In this document: one piece after another, positions 30,201 to 33,200 of the stretch
Layout: each line of letters opens with the position of its first letter
How positions within the stretch are numbered: the first letter of the stretch is position 1
DNA from: Tubiluchus corallicola
Lineage: Eukaryota > Priapulida > Priapulimorpha > Priapulimorphida > Tubiluchidae
Reading direction: 5' to 3'
NCBI GenBank assembly: GCA_030141605.1
Contig: JAQGDQ010000252.1
Location: 124,001 to 188,000, forward strand
Length of the DNA: 64,000 nt
The notes under the pieces: generated by a model
Databases searched by the model: none
Seen by the model: only the letters and a program-made list of their open reading frames with translations
Told to the model about the DNA's origin: nothing
Program-made: the position numbers and the translations under genes

Positions 30201-33200
30201 TTTACTAGTTTGTGAAAATAATAGAAACATTATTCCTCCGATGCTGTTCACCTCTTTTGCGCCAAAAACAGAAAAAATGCAGAAAATTCTTTCGAAACAC
30301 GGGACTCGTTGCCGTGTAAACACAGGGAATAAGTAAAGAATTATAGTATACAATCCAGAACGAAAATGTGTAAAATTGTTCATGCTTACATGCTGGACAC
30401 ACTGTTGCCACTGTTATGTATGTGCTGTATGGTATCCAAGTTATGATAAATATTGTAACCAAAGCAAATAGTGAATAGGCGGCTGAACGGTCAATATGTA
30501 ACCGATAGTCTTTTAAATTAGGATAGTTTAATGCTGACTCTGTGTGTAAGTCGTGTACTTTTGATTTACTAGCAGTGATTCTGCTATGCACAGAATTTGT
30601 CTTGCGATTTTTGATGTTGCGATACAACTTGTAATTAAAATAAGCCAAGCATGCGGCCGGTATATAAGCTTCAAAAAGATTTGTGAAAATGTTGAAATAA
30701 ACATTGTCGATGAATCCTACTTCGCAATCAGTTGTAGGAACATTTGATATTTCTTGAAACTGATCCCAGAACATGATAGATGGAAACCAGACCGTGATAC
30801 ATAATGCCCAAGATATAGCTATTCTTGTAAATGCCACTTTTGATGTTTGTTTGACTATGTAGCTAGAACTGTGTGAGACCATTGCATACCTATCCCAGCT
30901 GATCAACACTAAGCTGAACACTGACTCTGTGGTGGCAGTGAAGTCCAAAAAGAGCCACATTTTGCACCAAGTTTCAGAGAAAAGCCAGTAATAGCTGTAC
31001 AGTATGTCAAGTGCTGAGAATGGCGTGGCTATGGCGCCGATGATAATGCCACACACTGCCAAGTTTACCACATAGTAGTTTTGGACGTAGTGTAGCTTTG
31101 TGTCAACGATCAGTGCAGCGATTATGGCAATATTTCCAATGACTGTAGCCAGTGAAAGCACGGTCACAGTCATACTGATAATTACTGTTGATGCCATAGA
31201 AAAGGCAAGCTGAGGCACATCTTCGTCTTCTCCGTTGCAGCAGGAAGGTGTTGTATCTGAAGAAAAAGTCGATTTAAAATGTTTGACCTTAAATTCTATC
31301 TGGTACCTGATGGTAACAACAACTTTTATTTAACAATATTGCATTAGGTACTAAACTTTACACACAGCTGACCTAAACGATGACATAGCGGATGTTACTG
31401 AGAGGAGAGGATGGAGTATGGTTTTTTGACAGGCATAGATGGCCCTGCATTTTGACAAGATGTATTTTTTTGGTTAACGGATATTATTTGAAATCCATTT
31501 TTGCCATTACTGCGCTGAATTTTTTGCTGTACATATCTTGTTTATAGCTTTGTTGGTTAAGAAATTTTATTTGAAACACAGTTACAAAAAGCTTAATTTT
31601 GTATTGCACTTTAAATTAAAGCCCGTTTAAATTAACTCTAGAAGGATGGTGGAGTACTTCAAATTAGCGAAAAAATCAAAATTTTCTTACCATTTATGAA
31701 ATCCATATTGTAGTCAAATTTTCATTGCATTTTTATTATCACTGTGCTGAAATTTTTGCTCTACATATCTTGTTTACAGCTTTTTCCTATGTGAGTTTGA
31801 TGTATTCTCTTACTGTAATGCTATGCATTTGTGTTCTCATTACAGCTGCGCTTATTTTGCGAAATCGTCTATTACGGTGCACAACATTTTGCATTGTCAT
31901 CTCCTTTTATTGGTATTGCTTTTATATGACTATTACACAAACATTTACAACAGTCGCCTGCGCTAACAGGCAAATCATGGAAGCACATTTGTAATAATTG
32001 CTAATACAAACTGTAGGTAAACATTGCTGAACAAACACACACATTGTCATTGATGCAATATGAGGATATAATGTGAGAAGTGTATAAAGCATACAACGTG
32101 TCTCATTTTATGTTAATTTTTTAATTAGTTAATGTCATTAATATATTACTACAACTGGGAAAATTGATTTGCCCATTTTATGAAAGCATCATACCTGCTT
32201 GCTTTTCATTAGTTCCAGGTGTTTATATGCATTTATGTATGTCCAAAAAAAAACAAAAAACACAACACATATGTCATACCTGCTTGCTTTCATTAGTTCA
32301 GTGTTTATATGCATGTATGTCTATTTTATGAAAAAAACAAAAAACACAACAAAACCAAACACAACCCAACCAAACAAATGTAAGTATTTGTCAACTGTTG
32401 TTTATACATTTTGGTGCAGCAAAATGCAATGTCCGACACTTAATAGCATTGCTCATGACAGGGCCTAAATTCAGCTTTTTATTAGGAATAATCCTTGAAG
32501 GATTTTGACTAGAAACAGTTTTCTTGGCAGTTGCCCACTCATTTGCTAACCAGGTCTAGTAGTGCTAAATTATTCCTCTAGGGTATGAGCTTGGTCAGTG
32601 AGAGTTGGGCAGTTGACTTGTACTACTAGGTGAATGCAAGACTTAAGTGGGACAGTTAGTGCCCTTAGGTGGACTGTTTGAAGTTCAGCACATGACATAC
32701 ATTACCAATGTAAATCATTCAATTAATGTGAGTAATATCACAAATAATGTAACAAACAACAGGTAATGTGACGGATAATGTAACATACAATGTAACATAA
32801 TGCGTCAGATATTGTGACAGATAATGTGTTATCAACTCATAATGACGAAACATGACCTTTGTACACAATGTCTGTTTACATTGATAATTCTATATAGATT
32901 TATGTCATGTGTTCGAGTTTTCAAGAAAACCGGCTTTTGACATTTGCTCTTAAAAATAAGTTTTTCTTTCATTTTATACAGATTGTCACACACAGGCCAC
33001 TAGAGGCACAGTTAGAATGTAAGGATACAGGTCACAGAAAGTTAGAAATCTTATTACTTGTTTACTGACATAAAGTATCTCTTGTTTTTATTCTTGGTAC
33101 AGATGAGGTTGTAACTTGCAGGAAAACAATTCTTAAAATAAAGACTTTCTCATAAAGTGGCATGAGAAAAAAATATTTATCAATGGCTTTGGCTGCATCT

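What the first reader, a model, noticed from the sequence alone, without database searches (positions are those of the whole stretch)
30205..31706. Complete GPCR gene nested antisense inside a dynein intron
Seen: a two-exon, 355-residue seven-helix receptor on the minus strand, entirely within the intron 29637-33888 of a + strand axonemal dynein. Co-transcription would make convergent, overlapping RNAs. If the receptor is neural or ciliary, expression of the two genes may interfere or be coordinated. This cannot be a recent retrocopy, because the receptor has its own phase-correct intron.
Basis: partly seen in the sequence, partly recalled or inferred. Interest (0 to 1): 0.75.

Follow-up and report, generated by a model that had tools for sequence, protein, structure and literature searches.

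The report
Amine-type receptor gene inside dynein intron
A gene for an amine-type (histamine-H3-like) cell-surface receptor lies backwards inside one intron of a cilia-motor gene; such nesting is common in animals, but this intron seems to have been gained by this motor gene, and the receptor has changed two of its most conserved residues.

Summary
The nesting is real. On the minus strand, 31256-30205, an intact class A receptor frame lies inside a 4,252-nt GT-AG intron (29637-33888) of a DNAH5-class dynein heavy chain. Exon 1 (31706-31691) is plausible but unproven. The receptor is unlikely to be a retrocopy: its relatives have a phase-1 acceptor at the matching N-terminal place and three of them need an upstream exon. 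Its family profile matches histamine H3 best, muscarinic receptors next; it keeps D3.32 and has an acid at 5.46.

(1) The host intron is not part of the common dynein gene structure: 9 other dynein places in this genome (8 loci, including both DNAH5-class paralogs) run uninterrupted through the site, and human DNAH5 exon numbering is consistent with absence. It was most likely gained in this gene; the receptor arrived with it or later. (2) Of 82 receptor rows from this genome, only this one has neither D2.50 nor N/D7.49 (G and I instead), i.e. a dismantled sodium pocket.

Opposite-strand nesting is ordinary (4.3-8.7% of protein-coding genes nested in seven vertebrates; 567 opposite-strand pairs in C. 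elegans). Mature mRNAs need not overlap. Coupling of the genes is untested. Verdict: new member of a known kind, with an unusual history.

The parts
30205..31256 (-). receptor exon 2: nearly the whole class A receptor, TM1 to C-terminus, and stop
   Evidence: open frame; Pfam 7tm_1 E 1e-40; PDB matches
31691..31706 (-). candidate receptor exon 1 (MDFIN + first base of codon 6)
   Evidence: only ATG..GTRAG phase-1 candidate in the host intron upstream of the acceptor; chance about 17% within 452 nt; unproven
31257..31690 (-). candidate 434-nt receptor intron, phase 1, GTAAGA...TTCAG
   Evidence: acceptor at the matching place and phase in the paralogs
31048..31050 (-). codon GGC: residue 75, position 2.50, G instead of D
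30328..30330 (-). codon ATT: residue 315, position 7.49, I instead of N
30943..30945 (-). codon of D3.32, the amine anchor (role recalled), kept
30670..30672 (-). codon of E5.46; an acid here together with D3.32 was seen only in the H3-like clade
29662..29916 (-). three AATAAA signals on the minus strand (TTTATT on + at 29911, 29828, 29662), possible receptor polyadenylation inside the host intron
   Evidence: weak, A+T-rich DNA
29535..29636 (+). dynein exon F, upstream of the host intron (...TLTLAN + first base of G)
29637..33888 (+). host intron F|G, 4,252 nt, GTATGT...TTGTAG, phase 1
   Evidence: not seen at 9 other dynein places
33889..34028 (+). dynein exon G (rest of G + DRIPMSPM...PLLE)
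23060..37280 (+). mapped part of the DNAH5-class dynein heavy chain gene (12 exons A-L)

Best explanation
An intact, probably working amine-type receptor gene of a histamine-H3-like family sits antisense inside an intron of a DNAH5-class dynein gene. Shown: the frame, the host gene, the containment of the coding model, and the absence of the host intron at 9 other dynein places of this genome. Well supported: the receptor is not a retrocopy, as its family has an N-terminal phase-1 intron. Inferred: the host intron was gained in this dynein gene after it split from its paralogs, and the receptor gene, moved by DNA-level duplication, came to lie in it; the receptor is transcribed from its own promoter in the ~2.2 kb between 31706 and 33888 and ends in the intron; the dynein pre-mRNA removes the whole stretch by splicing, so that the two genes touch only at the level of transcription. 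The receptor likely binds a small basic amine (D3.32 with E5.46) and signals with altered basal activity or bias, because its sodium pocket (D2.50, N7.49) is gone.
For: Frame and family. Profile of five family members: histamine H3 286.9 bits, best muscarinic M3 243.3. One clade of 7 rows, support 100/100, holds the window receptor with C1587/C818, three C1885 genes and C19:167655 (33 of the 82 rows used). Phase-1 acceptor at the matching N-terminal place in the window and 5 paralogous places. Host: gapless 80-residue match to dynein axonemal heavy chain 5 over the splice. Intron absent: of 19 dynein matches, 9 places (8 loci if C1957/C2045 are one) run through the junction without gap or stop, including the two closest dyneins C51 and C1349, which share the neighbouring junctions A|B, B|C, C|D and E|F with the window gene and, for C51, G|H. 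Both exons F and G are constrained: against C51, 42 of 80 third positions differ but only 8 residues. Receptor residues. The intron's DNA is otherwise nearly single-copy at this sensitivity.
Against: No RNA evidence. Exon 1 is unproven. Acceptor-like AGs are frequent: apart from C1587/C818, where it was the only one, each frame held others, some in other phases, so the shared phase is suggestive only. Intron gain rests on paralogs within one genome plus human exon numbers from a case table; no related species could be read. Two of the 19 dynein matches (C1937, one of C770) cross the junction with a stop inside and were not counted; six end before it. The three DNAH5-class genes differ at other junctions too, so intron turnover here is not rare. 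Loss of D2.50 and N7.49 could mean decay; the tree program flags the window receptor's end branch as long (1.86, median 0.91). By single-sequence search the window receptor itself scores M3 (161.9 bits) above H3 (152.5), and C1587 scores M1 and H3 alike.
Confidence: 0.62

Rival explanations
1. One step: a DNA segment carrying the receptor gene inserted into a dynein exon and was at once, or soon, spliced out as a whole, so that the insertion of a gene created the intron.
For: Intron absent at 9 other dynein places; it is the longest of 11 mapped introns and holds one whole gene model; the rest of it matched nothing long elsewhere; GGT lies at both borders (ACG|GTATGT and GTAG|GTGACC).
Against: A three-base repeat is weak. 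The insertion cannot be separated from a two-step history without relatives. Splice signals at both ends would have to be present at insertion or arise quickly.
Confidence: 0.2
2. The host intron is ancient in DNAH5 and was lost from the paralogs; the receptor moved into a pre-existing intron, the usual route for nested genes.
For: The window gene is marginally the closest of the three to human DNAH5 (81.7, 79.7, 78.1% over 342-345 residues). Intron losses are common in general (recalled).
Against: Needs losses at all 8 other dynein loci that could be read through the site. Table 1 of PMC10754609 puts c.7039 in exon 42 and c.7387 in exon 43, leaving one intron in human where the window gene has two; the one shared with C51 (G|H, near residue 2410) is the better candidate.
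Confidence: 0.2
3. The receptor is a young or decaying gene without function; loss of D2.50 and N7.49 is the first sign.
For: Only row of 82 without both. Each change is one base away from a common codon (inference from GGC and ATT). Its end branch is flagged as long.
Against: The frame is open although it is only 31-35% identical to four relatives; N1.50, C3.25, D3.49-R-Y, W4.50, P5.50, W6.48, P6.50, P7.50, Y7.53 kept; summed from the base of its clade its path is 2.14, against 1.80 for C1587 and 3.84 for C19:167655 (my sums).
Confidence: 0.17
4. The receptor has a different 5' end: one exon starting at M26, or first exons farther upstream, possibly beyond the dynein intron.
For: The 16-nt exon is short and could be chance (17%). 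No convincing exon was found for five paralogous places within 2.3-2.65 kb, so first introns in this family may be long.
Against: A single well-formed candidate lies close by, and the joined product has an N-terminal N-D-T sequon.
Confidence: 0.25
5. The nesting couples the two genes, e.g. receptor transcription induces or represses the dynein in ciliated sensory cells.
For: Precedent: ceh-10 induces a short form of its host polq-1 in C. elegans neurons (PMC12274878; abstract, introduction and one results section read).
Against: Same paper: nested pairs are on average less co-expressed than neighbouring pairs. No expression data here.
Confidence: 0.1

Closest known systems
Opposite-strand nested protein-coding gene pairs of animals (PMC8467205, PMC12274878, PMC2330155)
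   Same: Short inner gene wholly inside one intron of a long many-exon outer gene, opposite strand. 4.3-8.7% of protein-coding genes nested in seven vertebrates, 74.3% of 296 simple human pairs on opposite strands (PMC8467205, parts 1-2 of 4 read); 567 opposite pairs in C. elegans (PMC12274878); 52% of 152 human nested antiparallel pairs conserved in mouse (PMC2330155, passages).
   Different: Inner genes are typically intronless (PMC8467205); this one belongs to a family with an N-terminal intron. The host intron itself seems to be gained, whereas the usual account is a gene entering an existing intron.
Histamine H3/H4 receptors (class A, aminergic)
   Same: Best profile match; D3.32 and an acid at 5.46, where the H3 row has E (its role in histamine binding is recalled).
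   Different: 31-35% identical even to its own paralogs; lacks D2.50 and N7.49; no ligand known; no tree with true H3 receptors was made.
Muscarinic acetylcholine receptors
   Same: Best single-sequence PDB match, M3 161.9 bits; D3.32.
   Different: E at 5.46; N at 5.58 where the M3 row has Y (my reading of the alignment); the family profile prefers H3.
DNAH5, axonemal outer-arm dynein heavy chain
   Same: 72 of 80 residues identical over the splice; Pfam AAA_6, a sub-cut-off AAA_5, Dynein_AAA_lid and AAA_7 in gene order.
   Different: Extra intron at LANG^DRIP with a receptor gene inside.

Membership tests
class A (rhodopsin-like) receptor | full-length 7tm_1 match | tested here: met
   E 1e-40, 1-260 of 260
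class A (rhodopsin-like) receptor | conserved N1.50, R3.50, W4.50, P5.50, P6.50, P7.50 | tested here: met
class A (rhodopsin-like) receptor | D2.50 and N7.49 (most conserved residues of TM2 and of the NPxxY motif; usual, not absolute) | tested here: not met
   G and I; among 81 other rows D2.50 in 79 and N or D at 7.49 in 81. Membership rests on the whole-profile match
histamine H3/H4 receptor | D3.32 plus acid at 5.46 | tested here: met
   D110, E201
histamine H3/H4 receptor | groups with true H3/H4 receptors in a tree | not tested
   only receptors of this genome were put in the tree; profile score alone points to H3
histamine H3/H4 receptor | activated by histamine | not testable with these tools
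   needs an assay
DNAH5 class | best match DNAH5 over other dynein heavy chains | tested here: met
   153.6 bits for DNAH5; next 136.7 (9fqr_I3, 4,730 residues, labelled CFAP57 by its depositors but dynein-like), then 107.5
opposite-strand nested gene | inner gene within one intron of the outer gene, other strand | tested here: met
   the inner 5' end is a model
opposite-strand nested gene | both genes transcribed | not testable with these tools
   no RNA data
retrocopy | loss of parental introns | tested here: not met
   phase-1 N-terminal acceptor as in the paralogs; no Met upstream of it in the frame; depends on the intron being real, which RNA must show
gained spliceosomal intron | absent from paralogs and outgroups | tested here: inconclusive
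   absent in 9 places / 8 loci of the same genome; human numbering consistent with absence; no related species read

The most novel reading that the evidence does not exclude
The intron was born with the gene in it: a segment holding a complete receptor gene landed in a dynein exon and the spliceosome removed the whole gene as one new intron. None of the seven mechanisms of intron gain listed in PMC3443670 (passages read) names a host gene as the inserted piece. The receptor then lost its sodium pocket.
Probability: 0.18. Interest if true: 0.72.

Novelty: new member of a known kind. Interest (0 to 1): 0.4.

Why it matters
As a nested pair it is one of many. It matters if the intron is truly new: then one locus would show whether genes can create introns by insertion, a question that a few related genomes would settle. 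The receptor is a natural double loss of the sodium pocket in an amine-type receptor that keeps its presumed ligand anchors, useful for testing what that pocket is needed for.

Tried and rejected
Mobile-element origin of the intron: DNA searches with 31257-33888 and 29637-31256 found only the locus itself plus two short matches (51 and 79 query bases); no Rfam family at gathering score in 28.5-35.0 kb. These DNA searches skip simple and very common words. A second haplotype of the locus: none seen for the receptor, the intron or the dynein exons. Assembly join as cause of the intron: unlikely, since the borders are in-frame GT-AG within one codon. Naming the animal: a mollusc haemocyanin family search (nothing rang in the controls either) and COX1 (no match in G000, controls rang in 8 of 14) did not help; the genome is 343.5 Mb in 2,344 contigs. 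Invertebrate H3 literature: one search, 3 papers, none on point by title and abstract start. A published example of a nested gene inside a gained intron: the search listed 9 of 9 papers, that listed 15 of 106; I saw none in titles and abstract starts, which is not proof of absence. A human DNAH5 exon border at c.7230: the search listed 15 of 101 papers, of which I opened 4; three hold the number only in a reference and one not at all. on the same question was unspecific (9,542 papers). So the human comparison rests on exon numbers in PMC10754609 Table 1 (section 4 read; its numbering is uneven) and on c.6988+2 = IVS42+2 in PMC4367086 (passages read). PMC8252271 (passages) gives 566 nt for exons 42-44, which did not decide the point. 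PMC6037435, PMC3443670, PMC3488318 and PMC2330155: passages only. The base rate of nesting around receptors in this genome was not measured. No structure was predicted.

Full report
Observation. The minus strand carries one long open frame at 31329-30205. It matches Pfam 7tm_1 over its whole length, E 1e-40, and 503 distinct PDB sequences at E <= 1e-5, the 60 shown being aminergic receptors. The host exons 29535-29636 and 33889-34028 join in frame to a peptide that matches residues 2331-2410 of dynein axonemal heavy chain 5 (PDB 8j07; human, recalled) without a gap, 72 of 80 identical. Twelve consecutive dynein exons from 23.1 to 37.3 kb on the + strand follow DNAH5 in order. The host intron, 4,252 nt, is the longest of the 11 mapped; the others run from about 267 to 2,526 nt, three with approximate borders.

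Exon 1. It is only 16 coding bases. It is the sole candidate of its kind in the host intron upstream of the acceptor, but in this window such mini-exons occur at 52 distinct donors per 128 kb of strand, so one within 452 nt has a chance of about 0.17. The exon 2 frame lacks a Met before residue 26 of the model, so either an upstream exon exists or the start is M26. I treat exon 1 as likely, not shown.

What the receptor is. In this genome its nearest relatives are C1587 (and its near-identical twin C818, 98% over 316 residues), 36-37% identical to it, and three tandem genes on C1885, 34-36%. A tree of 33 of the 82 receptor rows puts these with the window receptor and C19:167655 in one clade of 7 rows, support 100/100; the order within is weak (82/29), and the program flags the window receptor among ten long end branches. 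The profile of five members ranks histamine H3 first (286.9 bits) and muscarinic M3 best of the others (243.3 bits); one C1885 gene alone gives H3 205 bits and M4 167, while C1587 alone gives M1 172 and H3 171, and the window receptor alone M3 162 and H3 153. Acid at 5.46 together with D3.32 occurs in 4 of 81 other rows, all of this clade (three loci, as two rows are the C1587/C818 pair), and in the window receptor as E. A ligand with two basic groups, such as histamine, is a reasonable guess, not a result.

Not a retrocopy. All six receptor places examined (window, C1587, C818, three on C1885) have an acceptor-like AG at the matching N-terminal place with a phase-1 reading, and none has a Met upstream of the reference point in the open frame. 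AGs are frequent, and all but C1587/C818 have others nearby, so phase alone is suggestive. Stronger is that in C1587 and two of the C1885 genes no Met lies before TM1 at all, so an upstream exon is required; in the third C1885 gene a Met follows the acceptor directly and a single-exon form is possible. A retrocopy would be expected to have lost this intron.

Two lost signature residues. I aligned the window receptor with 81 rows from this genome: the 80 loci, chosen mostly from the upper part of the Pfam list and partly, plus the C818 twin. The sample leans to well-scoring receptors, and it holds two near-identical pairs. D2.50 is kept in 79 of 81; 7.49 is N in 79 and D in 2. Only the window receptor lacks both. 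Other signature residues are kept. Passages of PMC6037435 describe 2.50, 3.35, 3.39 and 7.45 as lining the sodium site, with contacts to N7.49 in some receptors. E at 3.38 in the window receptor (8 of 81 other rows) might compensate in part; this is a guess.

The host intron is unusual. A search of the genome with the 81-residue dynein peptide gave 19 matches. Two are the window's own two exons. Nine (C51, C1349, C1957, C2045, C2199, C1048, C177, C278, C64) run through the junction without gap or stop; C1957 and C2045 look like one gene twice, so 8 loci. Two (C1937 and one of C770) cross it with a stop inside and were not counted. Six end before it. C51 and C1349 are the closest dyneins (90 and 87%; the next 59%). 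They keep the neighbouring junctions of the window gene (A|B, B|C, C|D, E|F in both, though E|F in C1349 looks shifted by a base or two; G|H in C51) but are one uninterrupted exon at F|G. They also differ elsewhere: C51 has an extra intron in exon B; C1349 lacks D|E and has extra introns in D and E. So turnover occurs, but at this site the window gene is alone among those read. Over 342-345 residues the three are 78.1 to 81.7% identical to human DNAH5 and 74.9 to 78.3% to each other, so the duplications are old.

Human comparison. PMC4367086 gives c.6988+2 as IVS42+2, which is codon 2330, first base: the window's E|F place and phase. Table 1 of PMC10754609 lists c.7039 under exon 42 and c.7387 under exon 43, so one intron lies between residues 2347 and 2463, where the window gene has two (F|G near 2364, G|H near 2410). 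As G|H is shared with C51, F|G is the likely missing one. The two papers number the exons differently by one and the table's numbers are uneven, so this is supporting evidence only.

How it works. The dynein pre-mRNA must remove 4,252 nt by GTATGT...TTGTAG. The receptor is read the other way, may end by one of three AATAAA signals within 29.6-30.0 kb (weak in A+T-rich DNA), and then shares no mature sequence with the dynein. Interaction is limited to transcription through the same DNA. PMC12274878 shows that such an inner gene can induce its host, and that on average nested pairs are less co-expressed than neighbours.

Origin. Gain of the intron in this dynein gene is the most economical reading; whether the receptor entered a new intron or made it cannot be decided in one genome. 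The intron's other DNA is nearly single-copy at the sensitivity used.

Verdict. A real, ordinary kind of nested gene with an unusual host intron and an unusual receptor. Interest 0.4; it would rise if related genomes showed that intron and gene arrived together.

Noticed in passing
G000 C1957:74761-75003 and C2045:99531-99773: Dynein heavy chain match inside a single 4,097-codon open frame at two near-equal places: an intronless dynein heavy chain, possibly a very long retrogene with an unmerged second haplotype.
   Followed up: no
G000 C45, C2048, C2100, C2197, C2212: Five equal 28-residue dynein matches (residues 3-30 of the query, 64%) in 57-codon frames: a multicopy fragment or uncollapsed copies.
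   Followed up: no
L001:1259-2563 and L002:5794-7107: Long repetitive stretch open in three frames (401-437 codons) about 1.3 kb upstream of the C1587/C818 receptor.
   Followed up: no
G000 C1518, C1525, C1312, C2053, C1722, C1923: Several class A receptor matches close together on one contig, mostly 290-370-codon frames: tandem clusters.
   Followed up: no
window 32189-32351: 84-bp unit repeated about 1.9 times inside the host intron, outside the receptor.
   Followed up: partly
G000 contigs C92, C680, C322: Contig lengths of exactly 55,000, 75,000 and 225,000 bases suggest contigs cut at fixed steps during scaffolding.
   Followed up: no
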